The notes under the pieces were generated by a model. The model was not told the DNA's origin. It saw only the letters and a list, made by a program, of their open reading frames with translations, and made no database searches. Position numbers and translations under genes: made by a program. Source: Cinnamomum chago (Eukaryota; Streptophyta; Magnoliopsida; Laurales; Lauraceae). From it: 64,000 nucleotides of DNA. The stretch is from contig CP142452.1 of assembly GCA_038049695.1 (NCBI GenBank), positions 73,661,501-73,725,500 on the forward strand. Direction: 5' to 3'. Shown piece after piece: positions 3,185-52,989 of this stretch (position 1 is its first letter; every line of letters begins with the position of its first letter).

Positions 3185-5095
3185 TTGTTGATCAATTGTT
3201 TTCATCACTTTGATGGTCCAGTCCTAACCCCCGGCAGAACAGTCTTTTGATCATCACATTATAGTCATTCTTTCTCTTTAAAGTTGAATGTTGGTTGAAA
3301 AAAAAATAACCTCAATTCTGGCCTTAGGAGAAGCCACATCAGCTTATTAGGGCTCATTTGTGGATGTGTCCTTTCAAAAATACATAATATGTGCCTTTTC
3401 AATAAAAGGTGTCTCTTGAGCTAAATATGTGCCTTTTCAATAAAATGTCTCTTGAGCCCATTTGTGTGGATGTAGCCTAATTCAAATGGATGCCTTCCAA
3501 CTTTATTAAGGTTATTTTAAAAGTTTTTATTTAGTATTCAAAATGAGCATAAATGCATACGAATCCTTTGTTTTTAAGATAAAACGTATATGTTGACGTG
3601 GATTAAGCGAAGAAAGGTTTGGTTTTCATAATTTTTTGGTTGATTTAAATTTTTTAATTAGATTGTTATACATAGATTTATATTGAAGGGAGATTAATCT
3701 TAATATATTATTGAGGACTTAACAAGTGCGATGCACAGGGGCTTCACGCTAGTATAGTTGATAACTATACACATCTCCCTACCTTGCAAAAATGATCCAC
3801 CCTAATCCAGGATGCCCTGTTCAGATCCTGCCCACAACTATGTATTGGCAGTTTGACAGTCATCTAGATAGGCACCACAAAAGAAGCCTTCATCAAATTT
3901 GAAATTTTAGACCAGCTTTCCATTGAAAATTTGGGCTGTCCTCTTCTCTCTTTGCTTTCTGCATTTGTTTACTATGACTTCCATCATGAAAGATTCCCAA
4001 AATGCTGCCATCCATTCAAAATCTATACATTGGAAGAAACTAGCCATCAGTTTTTAATAAAGTTCTAGAAGATTTGAACATCATATCTGACACCAAATTT
4101 CAATCTTATATGTGTATTTAATTTCCTCCATCTGTTTTCTCTCTTTTAGATGATTGTTATCCCTTTTAATGCAAAATTTTCATTGTCAATGATGTCTTTG
4201 TCCCTCCAATTCTCAATCACCCACCCTGAATTTTCAACAACATTTTCTCTTTGAAAATGACTTGATTTAAATGTGGTTGACTATAAATCGGTTTCTTTGG
4301 TAGACAATTCAGGTTAGTTGGAGGGATACTGTGGCAACAATTAAAGCCCTGTAGCATATGCATGGTGGGACCCTCCAGACCGTTGACCGTGCGGGTATAT
4401 CTTTGTCTGATAGCGTTCTCTTTCTCATTATCCTTATAATTTCTAGATAGAAACTTATGGTACTAGTCTCAATTCATAAGACTTTGTACACTTCTTGCAG
4501 CTGCGGTCAAAATGGTTTGTTGCAGGTGCCAGTGTCTTGGGACTCTCTGGCCCTCCCTCCCTCTCTATGTCAGAGCTGTCCGTCGAATTCATGGGAACAA
4601 ATAAGCTCATTAGAATTAAAAGTGCCCATTGCAAAGTATGATCCTAAAACTTGGTAAAAATCAAGTTAAAATTGTGTAAAATGTTCGGTTACATTTACCA
4701 TTTTTTATGGATAAAGTCCAAAATGATAAATGTTTTGTAACTCAATTGATACAATTTTTGTACTCTCTATACTCTATTTTGGCTTTTTTTTTTCATACCT
4801 GAAACATTCTAAGTGACTACTTATTTGCATAGAATTAAATTTCTAGGAATTATAAAAATATTTCACAGAAATAAGGATTAAAAAAGGGAATTCTAAGAAC
4901 AATATTCCTAAATGACTAAAATTGAAGAAACAAAAATGAAGATCCATAAATAGTCATTAGTCTTCTCCTAAATGAAGAGGAAAGTGAATTAAAGGTATCA
5001 TCATAGTAAATCAAATTCTAGAAAGTTAGGTCTAGTTGATATCATAAAAAGGTGATCAATTTTTTTCTCTCCTCCATTCTTTGGGTATCATTGTT
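3185..5095. other. Intergenic DNA between the ACL5-like exon and LecRK1
   Basis: No gene is recognisable. There is a short local duplication at about 3383-3450 (the phrase 'tatgtgccttttcaataaaa' occurs twice) and a Helitron-like terminus at about 3722-3752. Weak open frames, for example 4457-4657, show no family signature. Confidence 0.5.
3722..3752 (+). mobile_element. Helitron-like 3' terminus (plus strand)
   Basis: A short hairpin (GTGCGATGCAC core) is followed by about 14 bases and CTAG at 3749-3752, with T next. This mirrors the terminus at 466: both read CTAGCG inward from the outer edge. Either two separate Helitrons face away from each other or only the 3' ends survive. No 5' TC end was identified. 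Confidence 0.35.
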
Positions 5096-5255
5096 GATTC
5101 TAATATAGCATGATTGTTCCTTCGTTTTTTCTTTTTTCTTCCTCACTTGTAATCTGTCTTCTTTGGTCCTCTGTATCCCTTTTTGGGGGGGCTCTTTGAG
5201 CTCTTTTCCCCTTTTTTCTTTTAATACAACTGCTCTTAAAACAAAAAACAAAAAG
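5096..5255 (+). mobile_element. Possible 5'-truncated LINE tail, first copy
   Basis: The stretch runs through CT-rich text ending 'cttttaatacaactgctct' and then an A-rich run. This layout resembles the 3' end of the L1-type LINE at 57.2 kb. Closely similar copies lie at 29250-29370 and 50280-50400, each on the 3' side of a LecRK copy, so it predates the LecRK duplication. It could instead be an old host 3' untranslated region; the LINE reading is tentative. Confidence 0.3.
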
Positions 5256-5665: not shown

Positions 5666-7693
5666 TCAACGGCCTCCAGATAGGTTTGATTCAGCGCAAG
5701 ACGATGAGGACTCAAAAAATGACTTCTCCATAGTGATACTAAAAGGATACAGAGGCCCCATCTCTTTCAACATTTCTGCTTCCGCTGCTGATACAATATT
5801 ATTCCACTCGCTCGATGAAAATTCTGGCATTGGACAATCCCCATCAAGAAACTGCATCACCTGCCTCATGCTAGGCCGACCTGCAGCCATGGGGTGCGAG
5901 CACAGAAGACCAAGCTTCAACACCAACTCCATCTCTTCTTTCACATACTCATTCCCCAATCTCACATCCCTTGCCTCCAGGATTTCACCCCTCTTCCAAC
6001 ACTCCAACACCCAATCCACCAATATCATCTCCTCCAGTGACTCTCTCCATCCTATTGGTCTCTTCCCACAAGCTACTTCAAGCATAAATGCCCCGAAGGC
6101 AAACACGTCCGTGCTCGTCGTCGCCTTCCCTGTTCGAGTCAGCTCTGGTGCAATGTAACCAAGAGTACCCACAACGTGGGTGGTGTGAGGATTAGTGCCA
6201 TGATCATATAATCGTGCCAGACCGAAATCGCCTAGCCTTCCGTTAAATTCACCATCTAGGATGACATTGCTAGCTTTGATGTCTCTATGGAGGACTACCT
6301 GCTCCCATCCCTCATGCAGATAGAGAATCCCAGAAGCCACTCCTTTGATAATTCGGAATCTTTGGTGCCAGTTGAGGAATCTCTTGGGCTGATCGAAGAG
6401 GCACTTGTCAAGACTTCCATTGGGCATGAAGTCATAGACAAGAAGTAGCTCCCCCTTGCGACGGCAGTAGCCAAGGAGCTGAACCAAGTTCCTGTGCCTT
6501 AGGCGGCCGAGGCTCACAATTTCAGCTATGAACTCTTTCATCCCCTGTTTCGATTTATGAGAGACTCTTTTCACTGCTACTTGAATCTTTGAAGAGGGCA
6601 ACACCCCTTTATACACCATACCAAAACCCCCAGTTCCTAAGAGCTCTCTGTCTCTAAAGCCCTTGGTTGCTTTAAAGAGGTCCTTATAAGAAAACCTATG
6701 AGGCCCATATTCACGCTCCCAATCCTCAAGCACTTCAGCATATTTAATCTTCCTCCTCACTATAAAACCCACAGTAAAGAGAGTTAGAAGAAAGAAAAAC
6801 ACAGCAATTGAGGGTACCCCAATTGTTAAAACCTTGGATTTCTTCTTGGGTCCGACCCTAGGAAGCTTGGGAAGGCGAGAGAGATCAAGCTCTTGAGCTG
6901 GACCGTTCATTTTAAAGCTCCATCCAAGAATGTAATGGGATGATGTTACAACCGTGCCCGTTGCTGCAGAGAAACCCACATACATGGAGTCCTCGATGAT
7001 GGGGGAGAGATCCATGGCTAATGACAACAGAGGAATATTGGGCCTGGCTACATTTGTAGGCGACAATGTTACATTGATCTGCTTCTCTAAATTGCTATAT
7101 TCTATCCATACCTGGATTGGGCTTCCACTTCCAAGGCTAAAGTTTCTGAACCCACCATTTCCATTGGTAAAATACGCCGCAGAAGCAGATTTAACAGAGG
7201 TTAGACTGTTAACATCGACTCCTACATGGTTGTCGTCTATGTCTTGAAATTCAAGGGTCTTCATCGTGTCGAACTCGATGGCAACGACATGATTAGATGA
7301 ATTCCCATCGTTTGAGGAGTTGAAGAGACCGAGATATTGGCTGGGTAAAGCTGCAGTGAGATCTTTGGAAGCAGAGACGACGAAGGCCAGCCCATGCCCA
7401 TTCAAAATGGGATATTCGGGAACAATGGCCATGACAAAGCTAGTAGAGAAAGAGAAGGCGTTACCAGATGAAGAGTTCTTGAAGGGGATGGGAAGGGAGT
7501 AGAAGGCATGTCCATTCTCTTGCCTTGAAGTGTTGGTTAGCCTCAAGAGACCATTTGGTGTGATCTGTGCTAACCCGTCCAGGCTCATGTTCTTCTCAGC
7601 AGTTGGAAATCCACTGTATTTGAAATCAACGACGTCTGATTGAGAAGCTGCAAAATTCATGAAGAGAAACAGAACAATGACCTTAGATAGCAT
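5666..7693 (-). CDS. L-type lectin-domain receptor kinase (LecRK1), intact copy
   Basis: A single open exon encodes 675 aa, the usual length for the family, which is often intronless. Residues 1-17 form a signal peptide. Residues about 20-262 are a legume-lectin domain with the metal-site stretches AIEFDT (138-143) and DDNHVGVDVNS (153-163). A membrane segment spans about 288-312. The kinase spans about 348-620: Gly loop GTGGFG (353-358), VAVK with K375, HRDIKASN (469-476), DFG (489-491), APE (515-517). All key catalytic residues are present. The juxtamembrane EVLEDWEREYGPHRFSYKDL and the kinase resemble Arabidopsis LecRK clade IV. Such kinases sit in the plasma membrane and sense extracellular cues, often in defence; the ligand cannot be inferred. 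Two further copies in the window are frame-broken, so this is the only plausible functional member here. Confidence 0.93.
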   Translation of the reverse strand: MLSKVIVLFLFMNFAASQSDVVDFKYSGFPTAEKNMSLDGLAQITPNGLLRLTNTSRQENGHAFYSLPIPFKNSSSGNAFSFSTSFVMAIVPEYPILNGHGLAFVVSASKDLTAALPSQYLGLFNSSNDGNSSNHVVAIEFDTMKTLEFQDIDDNHVGVDVNSLTSVKSASAAYFTNGNGGFRNFSLGSGSPIQVWIEYSNLEKQINVTLSPTNVARPNIPLLSLAMDLSPIIEDSMYVGFSAATGTVVTSSHYILGWSFKMNGPAQELDLSRLPKLPRVGPKKKSKVLTIGVPSIAVFFFLLTLFTVGFIVRRKIKYAEVLEDWEREYGPHRFSYKDLFKATKGFRDRELLGTGGFGMVYKGVLPSSKIQVAVKRVSHKSKQGMKEFIAEIVSLGRLRHRNLVQLLGYCRRKGELLLVYDFMPNGSLDKCLFDQPKRFLNWHQRFRIIKGVASGILYLHEGWEQVVLHRDIKASNVILDGEFNGRLGDFGLARLYDHGTNPHTTHVVGTLGYIAPELTRTGKATTSTDVFAFGAFMLEVACGKRPIGWRESLEEMILVDWVLECWKRGEILEARDVRLGNEYVKEEMELVLKLGLLCSHPMAAGRPSMRQVMQFLDGDCPMPEFSSSEWNNIVSAAEAEMLKEMGPLYPFSITMEKSFFESSSSCAESNLSGGR

Positions 7694-7930
7694 TTTTCTC
7701 GCAGGCTTCTTTGCATCTGGTGCAGACTGCAGAGAAGAAATGGAAGAAATGTGTTGCTATACAAAAGAGAATAAGAATACACAAGAGTCCACCATTCCAC
7801 GGAGTCCGGATGCTGACTTCGCCCTCTCCTTTCCCACTATAACATGAGCAGGAGATTAATGAGTCCGGATCCTCAGTCGCAATTCGCAGTCATGATACAC
7901 GCACCGCGAGTGGGGCAATCATGTGACGCG
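7694..7930. other. LecRK1 upstream region, ending at the CACTA insertion
   Basis: The first ~165 bases match the upstream DNA of LecRK2 and LecRK3 as far as 'gagcaggagattaat' (7840-7858). After that the sequence switches to DNA ('gagtccggatcc') that in the other units lies on the 3' side of a LecRK copy. The segment to 7930 and its continuation at 16010 are homologous to about 29031-29215 and 50067-50240. Confidence 0.6.
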
Positions 7931-7949
7931 CACTACAAGAAAATTGACA

Positions 7950-8345
7950 ATTAGCGGCGGTTTATTTGTCTGTCACTACATCTAACTATTATGTTAAGTA
8001 CAGCGGCATAAAATGTATTTTGCTGCTAATAAGTTGATTTTAATATATATAGTGGCAGAAATTGTATTGTACTGCTATTAAGTATGTATTTTTTAAATAC
8101 ATATAGCGATGGAAATTATATTTTGCTGTTATTAAGTGTAGTGAAGGAAAGTTTTTAAATACATACAGTGGCAGAAATGGTATTTTACTGTTATTAAGTG
8201 TAGTTATATATACAGCGGTAGATATGATATTTTGCTGCTATTAAGTAATACATAATGATATTTTACTGTATAGCAGCAGAATACCAGTTCTGCCGCTATT
8301 AATACGTCAACGAAGTATAGCAGCATAATACCATTTATGCTGCTT
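7950..8345. repeat. CACTA left subterminal repeat array
   Basis: About eight units of 35-65 bases repeat the pattern AGYGGCAGAAAT...TATTTTGCTGCTATTAAGT. Each unit is roughly self-complementary (GCGGC near its start, GCTGC near its end), so the array is a chain of small hairpins. Subterminal arrays in En/Spm are where the TNPA-type protein binds; that role here is inferred from family knowledge. Confidence 0.75.
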
Positions 8346-8399
8346 TAAACATTATATATACACATTTTCATTTTCCCTACAACGAGTTCCTGCTTTCCC

Positions 8400-9515
8400 G
8401 TGGTAAAGAAGGAAAAGCTCCCTCTGCACTTTCATCCCCAAAACTGAGATCTCTCTCTCTGCCCAAAACCCTAATTTAATCATCGAGAACCAGCATTTTC
8501 ATCCCCAAAACTGAGATCTCTCTCTTCCCAAAACCCTAATCTTTGAGACCTCTCTCTTCCCCAAAACCATAATCTCTGAGAACTCTCTTCCCCAAAACCC
8601 TAATATTTGTTTGGAGCTTCCAGCAGCTGAGAAGAAGAAGGTAAGACCTACTTCCCTGGATATTTTCCGATCTTCGACGATCTGCTTACGTTAGGGTTTT
8701 GGTCTGTGCTTTAATTTGTTGATTTCTCCTTCGTCAGATCTTGCTACGGTATCTCGTTGTTGGGCTGGAAGCTAGGGTTTTGTCGAAGAGCAGAAGAAAT
8801 GAGACTTTTTTTTGAGTTGTTGTGCTATTTCTGGTCGGATCTTAGGGTTTTTTTGGGTGAAGCTAGAATGGAAACTAGGTTTTTTTGGAGAGAAGAACTA
8901 AGGAAAAAGGTCGTTTGTGCTGATTTTGTTGAACGTGAAGGTTTTCTCTGTATTTGTCACAGATCTTGAGCCGATTTATTAGTTCTCAGTTTGATCAAGG
9001 GTTTTAGAGATGGAGATTGAGTTTGATTGGAAGTTAGAATCGTAATGCAGACTTTGATCCTTCTGAAAAAGTAAGATCAAAGGTCAATTTTACATAATCG
9101 AGTCTGGGGTTGTTTGGGTTTTGTTCAGTTGTTCTTATTTTACTGATTGGAGTTGTATTGAGGTGAATATCAATTTTATCTTAAGTTGAAATTCTTGTAG
9201 TTCGAGTTGTTTGCAATTTTTACTTGCTGATTGGGGTGAAGTATGGCGCAGAGTAATTGGGAAGCAGATAAAATGTACGTTCTGTGGTAAAAAAAGAGTT
9301 CTTTTTGTTCTTCTTCTTACTTTTCATGTGGCTGTTGAGTGGAGGGACTGCTGTGTTATTTTATTTTATTTTTATTTTGTTGAAGTTATGGTTTTGATGA
9401 ATTTGATTTTTTTTTAGGCTTGATGTCTATATCTATGATTACTTGTTGAAGAGGAATTTGCATGATTCTGCGAAAGCATTTATGGCTGAAGGGAAGGTAT
9501 CTGGAGATCCAGTAG
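8400..9515 (+). pseudogene. Captured LEUNIG_HOMOLOG-like fragment: 5' leader and first two coding exons (LisH)
   Basis: ATG at 9243 starts exon 9243-9274 (MAQSNWEADK). A GT donor at 9275 and AG acceptor at 9416-9417 join it in phase to exon 9418-9515 ([15 protein letters not shown], then [15 protein letters not shown]). Together they give 43 codons of the LisH/LUFS start of LEUNIG-type co-repressors; MAQSNWEADK is the LEUNIG_HOMOLOG form. A GTAAG donor follows at 9516, but the next exon (the family's DAPGGFLFEWW stretch) is missing. Upstream, a CT-rich leader with a GTAAGA donor at 8641 looks like the gene's 5' untranslated exon, so its promoter may have come along. The WD40 repeats are absent. 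The full protein is a nuclear co-repressor that oligomerises through LisH. Lies inside the CACTA element. Confidence 0.82.
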
Positions 9516-10189
9516 GTAAGACCATGAAGCAATATGTTTTTTCATTCTTTTGATTTTTTTTTCTTTTGCCTTTGAGGGGAATGCATCTTGTATTGTTCTT
9601 TTTGTGTTGGTACTTTGTTTAGTTCTATTGGGTTTGATATTGGAATCTGTTTCCTCATCAAAGTTTGAATAGTGTAATTGGTTATGAAATTATGGAGATG
9701 CAATATTGTGGTTTCTGATCTTGCTTAGCTTTTTTCTTTTTTGAAAGATATCAGGACTTGATTTTTGTCTTCTCTTAGAAAAGGCACTAGGGTGTAATGA
9801 GATGAATGGATTATTGTGGGCTTGGAAGGTCCAATACTTGGGTCTTTCTCAGGAATCATTGTTTCATAGGCTGTAAAATCTTAACCCATGCTGGATTTAT
9901 AAATGCAGAGAGATCCTCTATCTGTGGCCAACTTTGTCAGTTTACTTTGCCGTGGTAACGCAAGTACTTGCACACCCGCGACATACAAAGTCTCTTATCA
10001 TCAGCATTACATGCTGAATTGGTCCCTTGTTGTTTCTGGGGAAGGGGGTGCCTCACCAAGTTTCTAATGGATTGGCTGCGTTCATGAATGATTATGGACA
10101 GTGTACGCGCATCCACGTGTGTTAGATGTGATATGAACCATTCATCTATTCATTTGTCTGATTTGTGAGCACAATTGGATTCGCCATGT

Positions 10190-10460
10190 TTGGAAAATCT
10201 GCTTCCATTGGACGATACTGGTTACTACTCTCTTGCTGATTCATTCGCCATGTTTGGAGAATCATTCGAAGAAAAGAATGTGAACAAGTTGGCTCTGTAT
10301 GCAATGTCAGGACATGAGTCTTGCACCATAAGTTTCATATGAAAGTGACCATTCAATTAATTGAATAAATGAATAAATGAATAAAATCATTTGAAGAAAA
10401 GAATGTCAACAAGTTGACTCTGTATGCAATGTCAGGATTTGAGGGACCTGCAATTTGTAT
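10190..10460 (+). pseudogene. Unidentified coding-like fragment with an internal repeat
   Basis: About 10193-10318 reads open as ...LPLDDTGYYSLADSFAMFGE followed by SFEEKNVNKLALYAMSGHE. A second copy of the last part, SFEEKNVNKLTLYAMSGFEG, lies at about 10387-10446. The two copies differ by a few bases, and the amino-acid sense is largely kept. I do not recognise the family. It is probably another captured exon, partly duplicated, between the LisH and deacetylase fragments of the CACTA element. Confidence 0.35.
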
Positions 10461-11390
10461 GCTCTTATTTTCTGAGTTTTTTTTTTAATTGTATTGATGG
10501 TTTGATTCATGAGTTTGGCTTTTGCAATGGTTTTCTTTTATATTTTGTTTGTTTGTATACTGTATGCTGATTGCTGCCAGCTAAACCAGCATTATTTTTT
10601 GGAATACCAAGTGAAACTGGGGGAGAGAATCATGGAGTTCCAGCAGTAGTATAATAGAGGTCACATTGAGTAGTTGAGAGAGGTTTTTGTCTTCTACAAA
10701 TTTAAGCACATTCCAAGATTGAAGTTTGAGATATTGAATCTTTTAAAAAACCATATTCATGTGAAATTCATATTGTTGTATATCTATTTCAACACATTCG
10801 TGTTGTTTTAAATTAAGAACACTTTCGAAGTTTGAAGTTTGAGATATTGATTGTTTTTCATGTTCATGTAAGGTTCATAGTGGTGTCTATATATTAAAAA
10901 GCACATTCCATACTTTACATGTGATCTATTCAAATGGGAGGATTCTTTGTATTCAGCAATTTCATTTCTATATTATTATTATTACTATTATGAGAATATG
11001 AGAACGAACATTGGACGTATCTATATGCAAAGAGAAAGGGTAAAGGGGTGGGGTAAGAAAGGAACTTGAAGCTTTTGAATTTTTTTTTTTTTTTTTACTG
11101 TCTGCAGTAGGCAGAAGTCTATCATGGAAAATCTATTATTTTTTCCTTGTTATACATAGAAAGTTATAACACCTAATGATAGCATCAGGTTTTTGTTCAT
11201 TATAAACTGGGATTGGGTTGTTTGATGTTTAAATGCTGATATTTTACCTAATTCTTCTATAAAGTTGTAATCCTCAAATCTGTTCTTCTTGGTTAGCTCA
11301 TAACATGTTAATTACTGATGTAGGGCCTCCTTTTCATCTTGAGTTTTGAGTTCAAGATCTGGAGTTTATTTTATGTGCTAATCAAAACAG

Positions 11391-11590
11391 GGTGATGATA
11401 ATAGATCTTGATGCTCATCAAGGGAATGGCCATGAAATGAACTTTGCCCCTGATTGTAGTATCCTTGACCTCTGAGTATGTTGGCAACTTGGCATGATTT
11501 GACCTCTATGAATTTCACTAACCACTTTAGTGCTTACAGGAAGAGTCTATAGTCTGGATATGTTCAATTTTGAAATCTATCCTTTTGTAA
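11391..11590 (+). pseudogene. Captured class IV histone deacetylase fragment (HDA2-like), two exons
   Basis: Exon about 11391-11455, after an AACAG acceptor, reads VMIIDLDAHQGNGHE. This is the metal-binding and active-site strand of class IV (HDAC11-like) deacetylases, called HDA2 in Arabidopsis. After an intron ending TGCTTACAG, about 11540-11590 reads RVYSLDMFNFEIYPF, matching the family's RVYILDMYNPGIYP. As it stands the first exon's last base would join to give a stop (T plus GA), so it is decayed. All other deacetylase exons are missing, so it cannot encode an enzyme. It lies inside the CACTA element in the same orientation as its neighbours. Confidence 0.78.
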
Positions 11591-12861
11591 GATTCTCTAC
11601 TCCAGATAAGAGTTGTAGGAGGTTTTTATTAATTTATTTATTTATGGTATGGCCTGTGCTTGTGCTTTTAATGTTTGAAACTACTAATAACTATGAATGT
11701 AGAAAAGATGAGTTGTTTCAGTATACACTACTAATAACTATGAATGTAGCCAGTAGATACTAATACCTATGATGGTAGCCAGTAGATACCATGACACTGA
11801 GAATGCCAGGGGCTCTACTAGAATTTATTTTTGGCGTATTAGTCCTAGGAGGTTCAATGTGTAGACAAGTCATCCAAGTCATAGGATAAGAATTGAGGCC
11901 GTTCTGTGATGGTTTTGTGTTTTGTTTGTCATCTAAAAGGTAGTTACTTTAAAGATCCCTTTTGAGCTTAAGGTTTGGGCGATAGAGATAACCTAGATAG
12001 AGAGTCATCCATATGATCCCTCTTGAGCATCTCTTCAGCATTTTGGTGTCCTATAGGCAGTTAATTCCCTCACAGTCTAGTTCAAAACTTGAAATCATCT
12101 GGGAAACAAGATCACATAAAAATAGGCCCAATATAGCTTATAACAAAATGGCTCCCAACAGGCTAAAGAAATTCTGTACAACAGGTCCTAAGCGCGCAAA
12201 AGAATGGATCGAGAGGGAGGCATCGAATGCCACACACGTGGAAGACTGGGAGGCAATTACCAAAATAACAAACCTTATGCAGACAACATCAATGCAAAAG
12301 TCTAACTAGTCATCTTTCCAGATGAATCAAACAATAGTGAAAGGGAGAAGCCCCCAAAGGATCAAACCACACCTGATAAAGGGGCACACTAACCAATAAT
12401 TGGGAACCTCGCCAAGGGTACTTGGAGGACATGAGAAATCACTAATCATTCCAAGGGAACTTGAACTTTCCAACTGGCAGCTTCCCTTTGAAACATTAGC
12501 GTCCTGATATTATATCACAGAGAACATATTGAACCAAAGCATGGTCCAACAAATTGTATCTTTTGTTTCTCCTCTTGGAATCATGTTTTATTATGTGTTC
12601 TTTTCATTTATCTCTCTCATTTTATTGAATGTTTTCCATTAAAAAAAAAAACAAAACCAAAAACAAAAAAATGGATTAAGCTCCCGGTACACACACATAC
12701 TTTCTTGTCACCTGGTACACACACATACTTTCTTGTCGTTGTTTGATTGCCAGTAGCTCAACACTTCACTTACATGATTTATAGTGCTTATTGAATGTGT
12801 TTGAGATGCTACCATTATAAATGATGATCTGAGGATCCTCACATCTTATTTATTTGGACAG

Positions 12862-14818
12862 GTTTTTGCTGTGAAAAGTGTTCTTCAAAAGCCAATTAGT
12901 TTAATACAGGGACCCCTTGGCACAGGGAAGACTGTCACTTCTGCTGCTATTGTATATCACATGGCAAAACAGGGTCCAGGAAAGGTAAATGAATGTGCTC
13001 ATATCTTTTTTTTTTTATGAATGCCGATTCACTATTTTTATATACTCTGTTTTCATCGATGTGCTTATCCTGTTCAGGTTCTGGTTTGTGCTCCAAGTAA
13101 TGTGGCAGTCAACCAACTTGCTGAGAAGATAAGTGCAACTAGGTTAAAGGTAATAAAATTCAAACTGTGATATCTTTTCCTCATTCTTTTTGAAGCTGTG
13201 AACATGATGAAGTTATTGTCACTCAGAAAAGAAAAGAAGCCAACTTTAAATGACTCATCACTTGTAATGTTGGCTGCAATTTTCTTAAAATCTTCACATG
13301 TAAAACTATAGCTTTTGAGTAGTTTTTTGTTTTTTTTGCTTTTCAGTATGTCTCTTATGCTACTTACCTTTAATAAAAATTCGTTACCATTGAAGAAAAA
13401 ACTATAGCATTTTTGAAATAGGAAAACTTCATTGGTACAAACATGAATTCTTTCCTTTCAGTTGCATTTTAACTTTTTATTTTATTTTATGTATTATTAT
13501 TATTATTATTTTTGAATGGTGACTTCTTAGATTATGATGTTTGCCGTATTGCCCAATTGTGTTTGCTAGCTTTATGTACCAATGTGTATGTGAATTCTTT
13601 TGGTTTTTAGGTCGTCAGGCTCTGTGCCAAATCAAGAGAAGCTGTAAGCTCTCCTGTTGAGCATTTAACGCTGCACTATCAGTTGCGTTGATTGACTTGA
13701 ACTTCTGGCTTGATATGATATTTTATAAGCTACGGGGCCATCCAGGCACTTCTGCTACTGATGTTATCCTTTTCATTTGTTTGTCATAGGTACGACATCT
13801 TGATACATATGAGAAGAGCGAACTACATAAACTTCAACAGCTTAAAGATGAACAAGGTGAGGTTTAGCTCCTTGGTACTCTTGATTTATAGTATATACTG
13901 TACCCAATCTTATACCAAGTTCTCTCACCATTTGCAAACTATATTTTAAATCATTAATTATTGCATTGATGTTCTTGCTGATAAGTGCTCTTAGAGCTGC
14001 CTTGAAGGTTGACTATCTTTGTAGTTATCACTTGTGAGTAAACTTGTTACTACCGTGCTATTGTCGAGCCTCATTTTTTTTTTTTAACATAATGATGTTG
14101 ATTCAATTTGATGCCATTATATCAAGTGCTGCATTTTTTTCTGAGTGTTATCTGTTTATTTGTACTTGTTAAATTATTGCATAAGAATATAAGATACTTG
14201 GACACTCAATTGCATGTTTCTCACATTACCTGCAGAGTTGATACTTATACCATTTCGCCGAATGCCTTATAACTGTTTCATTCGAAGCTTTACTGGATGC
14301 TATTGATAGCCTTGCCTCATGTACTGCCTGCTTTTTTCTTTAATGAAAGTAGCCATTAAAAAAAAAAGAAAAAGAAAAAAGAAGAAGATAACCTTGCCTC
14401 TAAATATTCAATGATCTCGTGTTTCGACATTTTTGAGAAGCGGTGTCATTCCCAGCCAGGTATCCTTTTATCTTACGGTGTGCCATGACACTTTTCATCA
14501 TTAATTCATTTACTGTATTTTTATTAGCCCATGTAAAACCCATCTTCATTTTGAAACTTCACAGATTGGAGTGATAACCCCATATGAAGGCCAGAAGCTT
14601 ATATTGTAAATTATATGTCAAGAAATGGTGCTCTTAGACAGCAACTTTATAAGGAAATAGAGGTACCTTCAGCACCTGACAAATCGATGTCTGCCATTTG
14701 TATTTATTTGCTACAGTGTCATGGTTGTATTTTATTGTAGGTCGCGAGTGTTGATTCCTTCCAGGGGAGAGAGAAAGATTACATTATCTTGTCTTGTGTA
14801 AGAAGCAATGAATATCAG
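12862..14818 (+). pseudogene. Captured UPF1 RNA-helicase fragment, six exons
   Basis: Six spliceable blocks match UPF1, the ATP-dependent helicase of nonsense-mediated decay. 12862-12984 carries the Walker A region, GPLGTGKT where UPF1 has GPPGTGKT. 13078-13149 reads VLVCAPSNVAVNQLAEKISA. 13611-13682 reads VVRLCAKSREAVSSPVEHL. 13790-13856 reads VRHLDTYEKSELHKLQQL. 14565-14662 reads IGVITPYEGQ. 14741-14818 reads [20 protein letters not shown]. The first two blocks have intact GT/AG borders. The central exons with the DEAD-like Walker B and motif III region are gone between 13857 and 14564. The block at 14565 carries a frameshift and premature TAA, and the donor after 13682 is no longer GT. It is therefore a non-functional helicase relic. 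Its retained introns argue for DNA-level capture by the surrounding CACTA element. Confidence 0.9.
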
Positions 14819-15689
14819 GTAATGACACCACTTCTCTAGTAATTTAGGTAATACTACCATGGCTGTCTGCAGTGGTAGTCTATCTATGCCAAGCTGTGCA
14901 TTTTTTGGGCTATAGGCCATCCACGGTGGATCCCAGCAGCTGAAATATTATAATCGCCATAACAATTGAGAATCCTTTGCCCTTATTTTCACAGCACAAT
15001 GAATATAAATCTTTTCACTGAGCAATGGTCATATCCCAATTTTCTATATGTTAAATAAGATGTTGGTATTGTCCTTATATGGTTATCTTGTATTTATTTG
15101 TTTTGACAAGGCAAATGATTTTTGTTCGAAAATGTGTTAACCAGAACAACCAAAGGTGAAGCAGACACCAGAAAAACATGGAGCACAAAACAGTAGATGA
15201 AGCACAAGCAGTAGCTGGCAGTGCACAAGCTTGAGTCAGAGAACACCTGCTCGGGAAAAGATCAAAGGATAGCAAAACACTGCACCATCATTGCAGTGTT
15301 GGTTTGGATCATATGGATGGGCCTTGGTTTGTTGATTTGAACCACTGATTAGATGGGCACATCAAGGTAATGAGATGGCCAAATGCAGATCTTGAAATTA
15401 GACATTTGAGCTGAATTTTGTGTTGGTGGAACCATGGTTATTGTGAAGTAGCCATTGTATTTTTTTTATAGCAACTGTGGAGATCATTTCACATTGAGTT
15501 CCTATGTAACAAATTAGCACAGTAGTGTCTAGATCCCATATTCTTCTTTTTGTGTTGCAAATATTGGGCAGGGCCAACTTTTTTAAAATCACAAGTGCCT
15601 TTTCTTACTCTCCTGCTCATTTAAGACCTATAATAAAACCTATAATAAAGACACCCAATGAATAAGTACTAAACTGACTTGAGGAAGTT

Positions 15690-15995
15690 GTATGGGTTTT
15701 CAGCAGCAGTTTGTGATGTTTGCTGCTACAAGTTGCATGGGGTTTCAGCAGCAGTTTGTAATATCTGTTGCTACAAGTTGTATGAGTTTTCAGCAGCAGT
15801 TTGTGAATAATTAGTGGTGGTTTAGATCCGCCGCTATTGATAATTTTTTAACAGCAATTTCGTATTCCGCTACAAATACAATCAGCGATGGGATTTTCTA
15901 CGATAAAAGTGGCAGGGGATATTTTTCTACCGCAAAAGGTATTAGCGGCGGCTTTCATACATATAGCGGCGGTTTTTATCCGCCGCTAAATGTAA
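15690..15995. repeat. CACTA right subterminal repeat array
   Basis: 'TTTCAGCAGCAGTTTGT' occurs three times (about 15698, 15746 and 15788), spaced 40-50 bases and alternating with GCTGCTACAAGTT. It is followed by AGCGGCGG/CCGCCGCT motifs up to the terminus. The motifs match those at the left end in inverted sense. Confidence 0.7.
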
Positions 15996-16009
15996 TTTTT
16001 CTTGTAGTG

Positions 16010-16190
16010 GCGACATCTCAAGTTTTTCCACGCCAGCAGCCGGCAACGTGATTCTTAAATTGGAATTCTAATATAATAAGCAAATGGTATAGGTGGCTTG
16101 TCATAAATATTAAAAAGTGAAACCCCAAAACCAAATCCCGCCCTAGAAATTAAACTCCCGGTGAAAAAAAAAAAAAAAAAGCCTCCTGAG
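16010..16190. other. CACTA right flank and breakpoint
   Basis: 16010-16115 matches 29090-29215 and 50130-50240 (text such as 'aataagcaaatggtatag'), the DNA on the 3' side of the other LecRK copies. At about 16115-16120 the similarity stops. A short unique stretch with a run of A's then leads to the hAT end at 16191, so this marks a rearrangement breakpoint. Confidence 0.55.
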
Positions 16191-28867: not shown

Positions 28868-29844
28868 CCTTCACCGTCGATCAAAACACATTCATTGAAT
28901 TTCTCAGGAAAAACTAGTAGTTTCCCACCTACTTTTCCAGTACTATTAAAAAAACCAAAATGCGGTAGACCGAGTGTTGAGTCAGACTACAATTTGTGTA
29001 GAAGATCTTGGTTTTCACCATATTAATCTCGAATCCGTATCCACTGTTGCAGGCATGATATGCTCACCGTGAGTGGGGGCAATCACGTCTCAAATTTTTC
29101 CACGCCAGCAGCCACTAATCCTACGGCAACGTGATTCTTGAAATGAAGTTCTAATATAATAAGCAAATGGTATAGGGGGCCTATCATAAATATTGAAAAC
29201 TGAAATTGTGTCTGAAATCGTGATTTAGAACCCAGGCGTAGTGCTCTGTCTTCACTTGTAATCTGTCTTCTTTGGTCCTCTGTATCCTTCTTTCGGGGGC
29301 TCTTTGAGCTCTTTTCCCCCTTTTTTTCTTTTAATACAATTGCTCTAAAAGCACAAAAAAAAAAAAGGAAAAAAAAAATTCCATGCAAACGAAGGGCCCA
29401 AAGAAAAGTAAAACTGAAGATATAGAAAGAAAAAAAAATTCTTCTAAAAGAAAGATGCTGACAAAAATCCAAAGTCCCAAACTCTATAATGAGAAGAGTA
29501 TCCAAGACTCTGTCTCAAATCATGATTTAGAACCCATGCGTCTACTAAATGATAACAACTATCAACTAATGTGAATAATGCTAATTAACAACTCATCTAC
29601 TATGTTACAATCAACAGCTCATCTACCTATGTTACAATCAACAGCTCATCTACCAATGTAACAATGCTAATTATCTTCCTCAGATTTCATTGTCACTATG
29701 AGAGAATTATCTTGCATGGTGATGTGGTGGCTGATAAAGACCAATAAATTCACAAATAAAACTCTTGTTTTGTTTCAAATGTCAGCAGTTGGATTTATTT
29801 TCGAAGAATCTTGATCTTTAGCAATGGTGCAGTGAAATATGGCA
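28868..29844. other. 3' flank of LecRK2: inverted-repeat arm and possible LINE tail
   Basis: 28911-29030 is an arm of the inverted repeat around LecRK2. About 29083-29095 is the site equivalent to the CACTA insertion, uninterrupted here. 29250-29370 holds the CT-rich, A-ended stretch likened to a truncated LINE tail. About 29586-29665 has three copies of 'acagctcatctacctatgttacaatc', the uninterrupted equivalent of the LINE insertion site in X2. Confidence 0.6.
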
Positions 29845-32122
29845 TCAACGGCCTCCAGATAGGATTGATTCAGCGCAAGACGATGAGGAACCAAAAAATG
29901 ACTTCTCCATAGTGGTACTAAAAGGATACAGAGGCCCCATCTCTTTCAACATTTCTGCTTCCGCTGCTGACACAATATTATTCCACTCGCTCGATGAAAA
30001 TTCTGGCATTGGACAATCCCCATCAAGAAACTGCATCACCTGCCTCATGCTAGGCCGACCTGCAGCTATAGGGTGCGAGCACAGAAGACCAAGCTTCAAC
30101 ACCAACTCCATCTCTTCTTTCACATACTCATTCCACAATCTCACACCCCTGCCTCCAGTATTTCACCCCTCTTCCAACACTCCAACACCCAATCCACCAA
30201 TATCATCTCCTCCTGTGATCCTATTGGTCTCTTCCCACAAGCTACTTCAACCATAAATGCCCCGAAGGCAAACACGTCCGTGCTCGTCGTCGCCTTCCCT
30301 GTTCGAGTCAGCTCTGGTGCAATGTAACCAAGAGTACCCACAACGTGGGTGGTGTGAGGATTAGTGCCATGATCATACAATCGTGCCAGACCGAAATCGC
30401 CTAGCCTTCCTTTAAATTCACCATCTAGGATGACATTGCTAGCTTTGATGTCTCTATGGAGGACTACCTGCTCCCATCCCTCATGCAGATAGAGAATCCC
30501 AGATGCCACTCCTTTGATAATTCGGAATCTTTGGTGCCAGTTGAGGATTCTCTTGGGCTGATCGAAGAGGCACTTGTCAAGACTTCCATTGGGCATGAAG
30601 TCATAGACAAGAAGTAGCTCCCCCTTGCGACGGCAGTAGCCAAGGAGCTGAACCAAGTTCCTGTGCCTTAGGCGGCCGAGGCTCACAATTTCAGCTATGA
30701 ACTCTTTCATCCCCTGTTTCGATTTATGAGAGACTCTTTTCACTGCTACTTGAATCTTTGAAGAGGGCAACACCCCTTTATACACCATACCAAAACCCCC
30801 AGTTCCTAAGAGCTCTCTGTCTCTAAAGCCCTTGGTTGCTTTAAAGAGGTCCTTATAAGAAAACCTATGAGGCCCATATTCACGCTCCCAATCCTCAAGC
30901 ACTTCAGCATATTTAATCTTCCTCCTCACTATAAAACCCACAGTAAAGAGAGTTAGAAGAAAGAAAAACACAGCAATTGAGGGTACCCCAATTGTTAAAA
31001 CCTTGGATTTCTTCTTGGGTCCGACCCTAGGAAGCTTGGGAAGGCGAGAGAGATCAAGCTCTTGAGCTGGACCGTTCATTTTAAAGCTCCATCCAAGAAT
31101 GTAATGGGATGATGTTACAAGCGTGCCCGTTGCTGCAGAGAAACCCACATACATGGAGTCCTCGATGATGGGGGAGAGATCCATGGCTAATGACAACAGA
31201 GGAATATTGGGCCGGGCTACATTTGTAGGCGACAATGTTACATTAATCTGCTTCTCTAAATTGCTATATTCTATCCATACCTGGATTGGGCTTCCACTTC
31301 CAAGGCTAAAGTTTCTGAACCCACCATTTCCATTGGTAAAATATGCCGCGGAAGCAGATTTAACAGAGGTTAAACTGTTAACATCGACTCCAACATGGTT
31401 GTCGTCTATATCTTGAAATTGAAGGGACTTCGTCGTGTCGAACTCGATGGCAACGACATGATTGGATGAATTCCCATTGTTGGAGGAGTTGAAGAGACCG
31501 AGAAATTGGCTGGGTAAAGATGCAGTGAGATCTTTGGAAGCAGAGACGACGAAGGCCATCCCATGCCCCTTCAAAATGGGATATTCGGGAACAATGGCCA
31601 TGACAAAGCTAGTAGAGAAAGAGAAGGCGCTACCAGATGAAGAGTTCTTGAAGGGGATGGGAAGGGAGTAGAAGGCATGTCCATTCTCTTGCCTTGAAGT
31701 GCTGGTTAGCCTCAAGAGACCATTTGGTGTGATCTGTGCTAACCCGTCCAGGCTCATGTTCTTCTCAGCAGTTGGAAATCCATTGTATTTGAAATCAACG
31801 ACGTCTGATTGAGAAGCTGCAAAATTCATGAAGAGAAAAAGAACTATGACCTTAGATAGCATTTTTCTTGCAGGCTCCTTTGCATCTGGTGCAGAGAAGA
31901 AATGGAAGAAATGTGTCTTTATAAAATAGAATACAAAGACACAGTCCACCAGGTCACGGAGTCCGGATGCTGACTGTGCTCTCTAGGTTCCCACTATAAC
32001 TTGAGCAGGAGATTAATATGGTGATAACCAATATTTTATACACAGATTGTAGTCTTACTCGGTCTACCACATTCTGCTTTTTTTTAGTTGTACTGGAAAA
32101 GTTGGTGGGAAACTACGGTTCC
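28911..32122. repeat. Inverted repeat of ~115 bp around LecRK2
   Basis: 28911-29030 and 32009-32122 are imperfect inverted copies, sharing GTTTCCCACC, ACTTTTCCAGTAC, GGTAGACCGAGT and CACCATATTAATCTC. The same pair surrounds LecRK3 (49940-50066 and 59667-59780). LecRK1 lacks it: its upstream DNA passes from GAGATTAAT directly to the sequence that follows the left arm elsewhere. Confidence 0.75.
29845..31862 (-). pseudogene. L-type lectin receptor kinase pseudogene (LecRK2)
   Basis: This is a full-length paralogue of LecRK1. ATG at 31862 starts MLSKVIVLFLFMNFAASQ, and the signal peptide, lectin domain, membrane segment and kinase with GTGGFG, HRDIKASN, DFG and APE are all present. Two lesions lie in the kinase C-lobe. 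A 9-base in-frame deletion removes residues of GWRESLEE, leaving GSQEE (about 30215). A 1-base deletion near 30145 shifts the frame after LEAG, so the last ~100 residues are out of frame. An upstream in-frame ATG at 31949 exists, but homology to LecRK1 supports 31862. Amino-acid changes shared with LecRK3 (HGMAFVV, LTASLPSQF, KRILNWH) show these two are closest. A protein lacking the end of the kinase could still be made, but a working kinase is unlikely. Confidence 0.9.
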
Positions 32123-49904: not shown

Positions 49905-50652
49905 ACCGTCGATCAAAACACATTCATTGAATTTCTCAGGAAAAACCAGTAGTTTCCCACCACCTACTTTTCCAGTACAATTAAAAAACCAGAATGCGGT
50001 AGACCGAGTGTTGAGTCAAAGACTACAATTTGTGTAGAAGATCTTGGTTTTAACCATATTAATCTCGAGTCCGTATCCACTGTCGCAGGCATGATATGCT
50101 CACTGTGAGTGGGGGAAATCACGTCGCAAAATTTTCCACGCCAGCAACCATTAATCCTACGGCAACGTGATTCTTGAAATGGAGTTCTAATATAATAAGC
50201 AAATGGTATAGGGGGCCTATCATAAATATTGAAAATTGAAACTGTGTCTGAAATCATGATTTAGAACCTAGGCGTTATCTGTCTTCACTTGTAATCTGTC
50301 TTCTTTGGTCCTCTGTATCCTTCTTTCGGGGGCTCTTTGAGCTCTTTTCCCCGTTTTTTTCTTTTAATACAATTGCTCTAAAAGCACAAAAAAAAAAAGG
50401 AAAAAAAAAATTCCATGCAAACGAAGGGCCCTAAGAAAAGTAAAAATGAAGATATAGAAAGAAAAAAAAATTCTTCTAAAAGAAAGATGCTGACAAAAAT
50501 CCAAAGTCCCAAACTCTATAATGAGAAGAGTATCCAAGACTCTGTCTGAAATCATGATTTAGAACCCATGCGTCTACTAAATGATAACAACTATCTACTA
50601 ATGTGAATAATGCTAATTAACAGCTCATCTACCTATGTTACAATCAACAGCT
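49905..50652. other. Flank of LecRK3: inverted-repeat arm, LINE-tail-like stretch, LINE target
   Basis: 49940-50066 is the left arm paired with 59667-59780. About 50280-50400 is the CT-rich, A-ended stretch. 50621-50652 (cagctcatctacctatgtta and onward) recurs immediately after the LINE at 57260. Confidence 0.6.
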
Positions 50653-50741: not shown

Positions 50742-52943
50742 ACGACTGCTGGCAGTTCCAGGGGAAGGAAACGAGTTTCGGTCAAGTGGGAGGATTTGGT
50801 TTCCGTGTTTGTTAGTAATCTGCCAGAACTCATAGTGAGTGATCAACTGAGGCTTGCCTTCACTCCAGTGGGGAAGGTCTTCGATGCTTTCATCCCTGCC
50901 TCTAGTAGGAAGGGTAGAGGTTTTTGCTTTGGATTTGTGCGTTTTGGCAATTTGGAGACTGCTCTCAAAGCAGTTAAGATGATGAACGGGAGGAGTTTTG
51001 CTAGTAGGAGGTTGGAAGTTAATATTGCTAGATCTGGTTGGTCCCAGAGGGAAAGGAGGGATGGGGCTTGGAGGAAGGATAGGAAGAGAGTTACAGGTGC
51101 TTCTCTTAACTCAAATTTATTGCCTGTGCCAAAGGAGAAAAAGGTTTCGGTGGTCTTGAAGACTCCTAATGAAGACACAGTACAGCAGCATTTCAGCTTT
51201 CTGGATGTGGTGAAAGGGACTCACCTGCAAGGGGGAAAAACAATCGTTGTTCCCAAAGAGGTTGTCAACAATAACTCTGGGTGGTTGTCCAACTCTATGG
51301 TGGGTATAGTTCGTAGCGAAGGAGTTATTCCTTCCATCACTGGCATTTATGAGGAAGATGGTATCAAAGGGGTGAAGGTGGCTACTTTGGGTGGTAGGAG
51401 GGTGTTGGTATCCTTTCCAAATCTGGAGGAGTTTTCATTGTTGCTGGATGACCCAAAAGCCGCTTCAAATCAGGTGTTTGTCTCCTTGCAAAGGTGGATG
51501 CCAAAGCCTTCTACTTCTTTGAGGAAGGTTTGGTTGCAGTGTTTTGGAGTCCCTCTCCATGGATGGAGTGCAGAGGTGTTTGAGTCCATCGGAAGGAAAG
51601 TTGGGGATGTTGTGGAGGTTGCTCCAGAGACGTTGAATAAAGCTTCCTTGGAATTTGGTAGAATTTGTGTCCAAACAGATGATTTTTCCTTCATCTACAA
51701 GGAGATGGAAATCAAGATCTTTGATCTTTTGTTTAGGGTGGTTGCAAGGGAGGAGATGGTCTTTCAAGGGTGTTCCATTATGGATGGATTGGGACATTCC
51801 AAGGCATTTGAGATGGTGAAGACTAGGGTTCAGATACACACATCAGAGGAAAAGAGAAAACATGTGTTTGAGTCGGTAGACTCTACCTCGGATGTCGGCG
51901 CCGGCGAAGATGGTAAGCAGAAGGAGATCGGCATGCCGTCAATCGGTGAGGGCCATTGCAAATCAAATGACGTGGCATCAGCTGATAGGTGTCCATCTTC
52001 CCAAAGCACTCAATGCAATTGCAAGCTGGCCATGTCAGGTGGGCATGATAGAGGTGTGGATCACTTTTCAAAAAATTTCCTTTTTGATGAAACTATTCAA
52101 AGAGAGATGGGGGTCAAACACCATGCTTCACTCAGATGTGATATATAGGAAAGCTTGTTGTCAGAGGAGAGCTGCTCTGTGTTACCTGAGGGAAAAGAAG
52201 TTGGAGCTCCAAAGCCTCTAGTCATTAACACTTTGCTTGGAGCTGATGACAGGGATAGAGGTGCTGGAGCCCCATCATCCACATGTCAGCACTCAATCTC
52301 ATCCAATATAAAGTCCTCTAAGAAACTATCTAGAATAGAAAAAACTACTTTTACTGGGTCAGACTTGCTAGAGAGTGGGCCACAAGTTTTGGGTCAGATG
52401 GTTAAAAAGCCCACAGGTGGTGTTTCTTTAGAAGTAGCTCATGGCCCCATCTTAGACGATGAAATTGTGCTTGACTCTCAGGCTAGTGGGGTTCCCTCCT
52501 TTAAGCAGAGTTCTGATGGGTCTATCCCTTCAGGTATGGTTCTCAGGACTGTATGGCAAAAACATATTCGTTTTCTTCGGGCTTCAAGATCTAGGCGTGG
52601 GAGAAGGGGTATGAAGCAAATTCGGTCCACTTCACTCAGGGTAGAGGGGAATAAGGATGACTCTTCCCATGAGGCAAATGCACAAGGTTTTGCTCTTTTG
52701 GAGACTGGGGACAATGCTGTAAGCAAGAACAATGCCGGTAATACGACCAATCTAGCTAGGGAAGGTGGGCCAGTGGAGCATGCCTCAAGTTGTGAGATGG
52801 ATATTGTTGCTGCAGCTACGGAGGAAGCTTTTAAGACTCTTGAGTTAGGCAAAGGGCTAGGCATCTCTATAGAAGAAAATGAAGCAGAGATGCTGCAGCA
52901 GCTAATTGAGGTTGAGGTTGCTGAGATTGAGGGTAAGTTTTGA
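50742..52943 (+). pseudogene. LINE ORF1: RRM plus DUF4283-like protein
   Basis: The frame opens after a TAG at 50739-50741 and reads RKRVSVKWEDLVSVFVSNLP, so an RRM (RNP2 VFVSNLP, RNP1 RGFCFGFVRF) lies near the start. No ATG precedes the RRM, so the original start is lost or was further upstream. A DUF4283-like stretch follows (VWLQCFGVPLHGW, about 51530-51570). An in-frame TAG at 52146-52148 interrupts the frame, which then stays open in the same phase to 52943. Plant L1 ORF1 proteins bind the element's RNA. No CCHC knuckle was seen. Confidence 0.8.
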
Positions 52944-52989
52944 TATTTCTTGTTTACCCTTGTCCTTTTGAGGTGCTTTTATTATCATT

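What the first reader, a model, noticed from the sequence alone, without database searches (positions are those of the whole stretch)
7931..16009. A CACTA transposon that has gathered pieces of three nuclear regulatory genes
Clean CACTA termini, a GCG target duplication and an uninterrupted comparison site at about 29080 define an 8.08-kb element. Inside, in one orientation, lie a LEUNIG_HOMOLOG-like LisH start, a class IV histone deacetylase fragment and six UPF1 exons, plus at least one unidentified coding-like piece. Gene capture by CACTA elements is known in plants. Three recognisable donors in a single element with co-oriented introns and splice sites is unusual, and it could produce a chimeric spliced transcript from the captured co-repressor promoter.
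Basis: partly seen in the sequence, partly recalled or inferred. Interest (0 to 1): 0.8.

Follow-up and report, generated by a model that had tools for sequence, protein, structure and literature searches.

The report
Transposon patchwork of captured gene pieces
An 8-kb plant jumping gene carries broken pieces of several ordinary host genes, picked up in steps and shared with related jumping genes; this is a well-documented habit of such elements, here seen in unusual step-by-step detail, with no sign so far that the pieces make working proteins.

Summary
Window 7931-16009 (W) is a complete non-autonomous CACTA element with a GCG duplication. It carries LUG/LUH, HDAC and UPF1 pieces in one orientation, with donors on C12, C2 and C6. 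A further 621-bp piece has one other genomic match.
W is a Pack-CACTA mosaic of two capture lineages. Lineage H (5' module-HDAC-UPF1-3' module) supplies both ends; lineage L (LUH-X1-X2) supplies an internal segment. W is the only one of 34 multi-module clusters with all modules. UPF1 pieces occur at 22 places outside the donor gene; the nine longest fit one capture followed by differing deletions.
UPF1 exons diverge like introns, and nonsynonymous:synonymous events are 43:13 against 2.95:1 neutral. W alone has a frameshift and a lost splice donor; its Walker-A change is shared with one other copy. LUH exon 2 joins neither the HDAC exon nor UPF1 exons A or B in frame. The leader is the transposon's, not LUH's promoter. 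Several donors in one CACTA element is published. Verdict: new member of a known kind.

The parts
7928..7930 (.). GCG target-site duplication, left (right copy 16010-16012)
7931..7960 (+). left terminal inverted repeat, CACTACAAGAAAA...
   Evidence: I1, 90% complementary to 15980-16009
7931..8967 (+). 5' module of the CACTA family: subterminal repeats, then leader without ATG in 8400-8640, putative splice donor AAG|GTAAGA at 8641
   Evidence: (D1, D2); also in the C4 and C6 sister elements (93% and 90%)
8966..9735 (+). LUG/LUH piece: end of a 5'UTR intron (putative acceptor, exon from 9201), ATG exon 9243-9274, LisH exon 9418-9515, start of next intron; donor C12:10979277, exon 3 at C12:10983449
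9736..9948 (+). module X1, unidentified; also at 11 other places where the match does not continue into LUH
9953..10969 (+). module X2, unidentified; about 570-595 bp that lie between X1 and X2 in the related copies read are missing here
10975..11182 (+). short piece with two other genomic matches (C12:34.6 Mb, C5:80.4 Mb)
11174..11374 (+). HDAC-gene piece a (taken as intronic); donor C2:94697024-94697226
11367..11682 (+). HDAC-gene piece b with catalytic-domain exon (IIDLDAHQGNGHE); donor C2:94699238-94699549
11683..12303 (+). 621-bp piece with a single other match, C2:17021663-17022285 (94%), probable further donor; seen in no other element
12304..14431 (+). UPF1 block 1, exons A-D with introns; Walker-A P to L (also in the C11:8.19 copy) and loss of the exon C splice donor (W only, of 11 copies covering it)
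14427..14901 (+). UPF1 block 2, exons J and K; one-base deletion in J (W only, of 9 copies covering it); 1551 bp of donor missing between blocks
14884..16009 (+). 3' module of the CACTA family with 45-bp subterminal repeats 15685-15819
   Evidence: (D4)
15980..16009 (-). right terminal inverted repeat
29049..29205 (+). diverged uninterrupted relative of the insertion site (second one at 50083-50242)

Best explanation
W is a non-autonomous Pack-CACTA element moved in trans by a CACTA transposase. SHOWN: its modules recur in two sets of loci. Lineage H holds pieces spanning about 2.8 kb or more of an HDAC gene and about 4.3 kb of UPF1 between family 5' and 3' modules. Lineage L holds about 1.07 kb of LUH next to module X1. 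W has the ends and HDAC-UPF1 core of H with a shortened LUH-X1-X2 segment of L between the 5' module and HDAC, plus a 621-bp piece seen in no other element. SHOWN: short shared sequence (1 to about 6 bp) at the joins read, differing internal deletions, and neutral decay of UPF1. INFERRED: the joins arose when breaks in or beside an element were repaired with slippage to other templates or by end joining with short matches, or when neighbouring same-family elements moved as one. INFERRED: transcription, if any, starts in the transposon leader, splices through a hybrid intron (8641 to 9200) into the LUH ATG exon, and gives non-coding or rapidly terminating RNA.
For: Termini and duplication. Sister elements with both ends at C4:83425797-83434819 and C6:65821590-65833403 share 5', HDAC, UPF1 and 3' modules and lack LUH. 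Donors on separate chromosomes, each with gene parts that W lacks: UPF1 Zn domain at C6:2923401-2924273, LUH exon 3 at C12:10983449, downstream class IV-like HDAC exons at C2:94711138-94713305. 34 multi-module clusters, 0 of mixed strand, only W with all modules. UPF1: 22 places outside the donor; over 2601 sites in 9 copies, 13 differences from the donor fixed, 28 shared, 136 single-copy. LUH: 8 of 8 L copies start at donor 1219-1230 and end at 2285. Neutrality: exons 91/5260 against non-exon 430/26809 over 14 copies; nonsynonymous:synonymous 43:13 against 2.95 neutral, p=0.88, 5 stops. No ORF of 220 aa or more in W.
Against: No RNA, small-RNA or mobilisation data. The helper is not identified: the one transposase-bearing element whose 5' end was read (C1:10807029) matches W only over the terminal 28 bp (82-86%), not in the subterminal repeats. 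Of the 22 UPF1 places only W and two sisters were read to both ends; some others (for instance C7:5.27 Mb, which holds the longest UPF1 stretch) could be ordinary duplications. The C2:63.60-63.61 Mb cluster also holds LUH-X2 and UPF1 about 9 kb apart and could be another joint or two neighbouring elements. LUH exons in W are intact with one synonymous change, so decay is shown for UPF1, not for LUH.
Confidence: 0.9

Rival explanations
1. W is a working or emerging chimeric gene: captured exons are spliced into a protein under selection.
For: Co-oriented pieces; splice sites of the LUH exons intact and a hybrid leader intron plausible. In wheat, 19 captured genes were reported expressed and under selection (PMC4290129 passages).
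Against: UPF1 exons evolve neutrally. Frameshift and lost splice donor private to W, and a Walker-A change shared with one copy. LUH exon 2 joins neither the HDAC exon nor UPF1 exons A or B in frame. LUH exons show no constraint among copies, with low power (4 of 130 variable positions against 28 of 655, p=0.64).
Confidence: 0.04
2. The capture elements act as small-RNA sources: dispersed UPF1 pieces (and HDAC, LUH pieces) feed siRNAs that down-tune the donors, or shield the element from silencing.
For: Many copies of donor exons at 96-98% identity; the camouflage/epigenetic-conflict idea is in print (PMC8978399 passages).
Against: No small-RNA data. Within the 34 clusters all pieces lie in one orientation, so no inverted repeat of donor exons was seen.
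Confidence: 0.12
3. The pieces were captured independently, one by one, directly by W.
For: The 621-bp piece was found in no other element.
Against: HDAC, UPF1, LUH, X1 and X2 pieces with matching boundaries occur at many other places.
Confidence: 0.02
4. Nested or neighbouring insertion: an L element inserted into or beside an H element and was trimmed, rather than template switching.
For: The one L element with a 5' end in hand carries nearly the same terminal 40 bp as W (L028), so same-family local insertion is possible; tandem-insertion capture is the published Pack-TYPE model (PMC8903248, PMC13317346 passages).
Against: No remnant L terminus is seen inside W (only two termini in the window at up to one mismatch).
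Confidence: 0.35

Closest known systems
Pack-CACTA / Pack-TYPE elements (Arabidopsis, rice, maize; PMC8903248 passages, PMC13317346 passages)
   Same: CACTA ends, 3-bp duplication, no transposase, coding DNA from several loci, same-family interaction proposed as the source of new cargo
   Different: Here single captures can be followed through several copies with distinct internal deletions, and two capture lineages are joined in one element; host is an unnamed plant
Tgm-Express1, soybean wp allele (PMC1947982 abstract and passages)
   Same: 5.7-kb CACTA element with exon and intron pieces of five host genes
   Different: Its chimeric transcripts were shown by RT-PCR and start at a host-gene promoter; W lies upstream of, not within, the nearest receptor-kinase ORF and has no expression data
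Wheat CACTA gene captures, chromosome 3B (PMC4290129 passages)
   Same: Gene pieces captured and multiplied; one gene repeated in two CACTA families, read by the authors as recent DNA exchange
   Different: There some captured genes were expressed and under purifying selection; UPF1 here is neutral
Tpn1 family, Ipomoea (recalled; PMC5105172 seen only in a search listing)
   Same: Non-autonomous CACTA elements reported to carry host gene segments (recalled)
   Different: Not compared here

Membership tests
CACTA (En/Spm) superfamily | Terminal inverted repeats beginning CACTA | tested here: met
CACTA (En/Spm) superfamily | 3-bp target-site duplication | tested here: met
   GCG in W, TCT and AAT in two sisters
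CACTA (En/Spm) superfamily | Subterminal short direct and inverted repeats | tested here: met
   D1, D2, D4, I2
Pack-CACTA / Pack-TYPE | No transposase gene | tested here: met
   no ORF of 220 aa or more in 7931-16009; no transposase among Pfam hits of the 10 peptides scanned; not every frame of W was scanned
Pack-CACTA / Pack-TYPE | Holds DNA of identifiable host genes present elsewhere in the genome | tested here: met
   donors on C12, C2 and C6
Pack-CACTA / Pack-TYPE | Moved in trans by an autonomous element with compatible ends | tested here: inconclusive
   Many Transposase_21 loci (150 scored of 1658 candidates); one lies between exact 13-bp termini at C1:10807029-10816564, but its 5' subterminal region does not match W
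Expressed chimeric capture (Tgm-Express1 type) | Chimeric spliced transcripts | not testable with these tools
   no RNA data held
Functional captured gene | Purifying selection on exons | tested here: not met
   UPF1; LUH exons: no significant constraint, low power; HDAC not tested

The most novel reading that the evidence does not exclude
The fusion placed the LUH start exon behind the transposon's own leader with an intact hybrid 5'UTR intron, so W could express a LisH-only micropeptide (43 residues, 55 if the next intron is retained) that competes with LUG/LUH dimerisation or partner binding. Meanwhile the amplified UPF1 pieces could feed small RNAs against the nonsense-mediated decay factor that would otherwise remove the element's own aberrant transcripts.
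Probability: 0.04. Interest if true: 0.75.

Novelty: new member of a known kind. Interest (0 to 1): 0.33.

Why it matters
It turns a suspected curiosity into a readable series. In one genome the same UPF1, HDAC and LUH pieces can be followed through several elements with different deletions and partners, so the order of capture, trimming and exchange can be read from sequence alone. That makes rival models of how Pack-CACTA elements gather genes testable. For annotation it warns that most of the 22 UPF1-like places outside the donor gene are probably transposon cargo, not genes.

Tried and rejected
Rejected: the LUH promoter as driver (the piece starts inside the gene's transcribed leader region as far as splice motifs tell; the leader of W is the family's 5' module). 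Rejected: independent capture of the LUH, HDAC and UPF1 pieces by W. Rejected: a coding chimera with UPF1. Weakened: 29080 as a clean empty site (10-bp difference at the junction).

Corrected on checking: I first took the Walker-A change for private to W (also in my note); one search shows that its base change is shared with the C11:8.19 copy. BLAST overlaps at the HDACa|HDACb join suggested 8 shared bases; read letter by letter only one is exact.

Led nowhere: Pfam on 7 peptides from the unidentified pieces, out of 72 ORFs of 30 aa or more there, gave nothing above a family cut-off. The candidate helper's 5' end matches W only over 28 bp. PDB search of the LisH peptide gave weak hits only: a kinesin light chain at 0.043, then SSBP-type LisH proteins at 0.15-0.74. 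No species name was established.

Limits of counts: genome searches score only the best candidates. One search was made from typed hit lists. Dropped were 11 of 45 rows (short or 78-93% identical 5'-module matches), 3 of 47 rows, 17 of 44 rows (two belong to the C3 UPF1 paralogue, 15 short and low-scoring), and shorter or overlapping rows. Clusters were joined within 12 kb and share ancestry, so they are not independent. Four of the 34 hold only the two HDAC pieces, one of these being the donor gene itself. One search used 14 of the 22 UPF1 copies (those with fetched sequence); its 'intron' class includes exons deleted in W. Pooled differences count sequences, not events; one search counts events. 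Per position, one search found more events in exons (56 of 513) than elsewhere (239 of 3647, p=0.0006), largely because more copies cover the exons; per covered base the rates are 10.6 and 8.9 per kb.
Full report
WHAT IS THERE. The window lies at C2:73661501-73725500 of a 1.06-Gb assembly of 14 contigs. Window 7931-16009 (called W) has 30-nt inverted ends, 90% complementary, starting CACTACAAGAAAA, flanked by GCG on both sides. The 13-base terminus occurs 2421 times in the genome (1190 forward, 1231 reverse), against 102 for the reversed control pattern, so the terminal family is large. W has subterminal repeats at both ends and no ORF of 220 aa or more.

INSERTION SITE. Joined flanks align to 29049-29205, and there is a second relative at 50083-50242, but the junction differs by 10 bp from a clean empty site. 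The five top scores among 261 control windows all come from windows starting at 49.9-50.1 kb, that is, from the second relative. These are diverged relatives, not an empty allele. The sister elements on C4 and C6 carry their own duplications TCT and AAT. The window holds an array of lectin-domain receptor kinase genes. W lies about 240 bp upstream of the start of the ORF at 5666-7693 (minus strand).

DONORS. UPF1: W matches C6:2917396-2919524 over 12304-14431 at 97.3%, and 14427-14901 matches the same gene further on at 97.3%, with 1551 bp of donor missing between. The UPF1 zinc-binding domain, absent from W, is found 4-5 kb upstream of that donor on the same strand. LUH: 8966-9735 matches C12:10979277-10980061 at 96.2%, and the next LUG/LUH exon lies at C12:10983449. 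HDAC: 11174-11374 and 11367-11682 match C2:94697024-94697226 and C2:94699238-94699549 at 93.6% and 95.0%. Class IV-like downstream exons lie at C2:94711138-94713305, 11.6 kb and more away. That these belong to one gene is inferred; a related locus at C4:21583249-21586268 holds both parts within about 3 kb. A further piece, 11683-12303, has a single other match, C2:17021663-17022285 at 94%. It is probably another captured piece.

TWO LINEAGES. Clustering the module hits gave 34 places with more than one module, none of mixed strand (four of them hold only the two HDAC pieces, one being the donor gene). Lineage H runs 5' module, HDAC, UPF1, 3' module. Partial stages exist, such as 5'-HDAC-3' without a UPF1 hit at C6:28733445-28739072. 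Lineage L runs LUH-X1-X2, and X1-X2 also occurs without LUH. W is the only cluster with all modules. Two H sisters were followed from end to end (C4:83425797-83434819 and C6:65821590-65833403). Both ends of W match them at 90-97%, and both lack LUH. One L element (L028) has a 5' end that differs from W's at one base in 40. W therefore looks like an H element that received a shortened segment of an L element. The C2:63.60-63.61 Mb cluster has LUH-X2 and UPF1 about 9 kb apart and was not resolved.

SINGLE CAPTURES, THEN TRIMMING. One search gave 23 places at 96-100% identity to the UPF1 block, one of them the donor gene, so 22 others including W; only W and the two sisters were read to both CACTA ends. 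In the 9 longest copies, over 2601 sites, 13 differences from the donor are shared by all copies, 28 by some, and 136 are found in one copy. This fits one capture followed by rapid spread. Copies have different internal deletions of the donor region: 3629-5180 in W; 3908-5044 in the C4 and C6 sisters and C8:47.2; 4334-5248 in three copies; 3765-4013 in two. All 8 L copies examined share LUH boundaries at donor 1219-1230 and 2285, while W starts at 1501. Joins read letter by letter: 5'|LUH shares 2 bp, LUH|X1 6 bp (all T), HDACa|HDACb 1 bp, UPF1a|b 5 bp; UPF1|3' shares about 5 bp if the 3' module starts where the match at C6:28.7 Mb does.

FUNCTION TESTS. In 14 UPF1 copies, exon positions differ from the donor at 91 of 5260 and other positions at 430 of 26809. 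Counted as events, 43 are nonsynonymous (5 of them stops) and 13 synonymous; a neutral ratio would be 2.95:1, p=0.88. W has a proline-to-leucine change in Walker A, loss of the exon C splice donor and a one-base deletion in exon J. The Walker-A base change is shared with the C11:8.19 copy (2 of 14 copies); the splice-donor loss is found in 1 of 11 and the deletion in 1 of 9 copies covering those sites, W in both cases. LUH exons in W are intact with one synonymous change; among copies 4 of 130 exon and 28 of 655 other positions vary, p=0.64, so there is no evidence of constraint but little power. HDAC exons were not tested. Joining LUH exon 2 to the HDAC exon or to UPF1 exons A or B breaks the frame.

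HOW IT MOST LIKELY WORKS. A trans-acting CACTA transposase moves the element. The likely helper was not found: the one transposase-bearing element whose 5' end was read differs in the subterminal region. Growth and exchange of cargo most likely come from repair at breaks in or near same-family elements, or from joint movement of neighbouring elements, the published Pack-TYPE model (PMC8903248 and PMC13317346, passages). If transcribed, the leader at 8400-8640 could splice over a hybrid intron (8641 to 9200) to the LUH start exon. This is inference from splice-site motifs.

COMPARISON. Tgm-Express1 carries five gene fragments that are spliced into chimeric transcripts (PMC1947982, abstract and passages). 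Maize Pack-TYPE elements often hold several loci, Pack-CACTA the most (PMC8903248 passages). Wheat CACTA families show captured genes in several copies and, in the authors' reading, exchange between families (PMC4290129 passages). A search for papers holding at least three of CACTA, LEUNIG, histone deacetylase and UPF1 gave 3 papers; by title none concerns this, and none was opened. W is therefore a new member of a known kind, with an unusually readable history.

Noticed in passing
window 5666-7693 (-), 30141-31949 (-), 57491-58810 (-): Lectin-domain (Lectin_legB) receptor kinase ORFs in repeated units; W sits about 240 bp upstream of the start codon of the first one, so it may affect that gene's promoter.
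   Followed up: partly
window 50796-57064 (+): LINE-type retroelement: RRM/DUF4283 ORF, endonuclease, reverse transcriptase and RNase H-like domains.
   Followed up: no
G000 C8:14868986-14871703 (-): A UPF1 piece lies within 3 kb of a LUG/LUH exon 3 at 87% identity to the typed query, possibly a separate capture of a different part of a LUG-type gene.
   Followed up: no
C4 sister element, C4:83431713-83432230 approximately: A palindromic insert with arms of about 80% identity sits inside the UPF1 piece of the C4 sister and has no counterpart in the C6 sister, probably a later MITE-like insertion.
   Followed up: no
G000 C1:10807029-10816564: Transposase_21 ORF (796 aa open frame) between exact CACTACAAGAAAA termini but with a 5' subterminal region unlike W: another subfamily with the same terminal 13 bases.
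   Followed up: partly
window 10975-11182: Short piece with only two other matches in the genome search (C12:34.6 Mb, C5:80.4 Mb), origin unknown.
   Followed up: no
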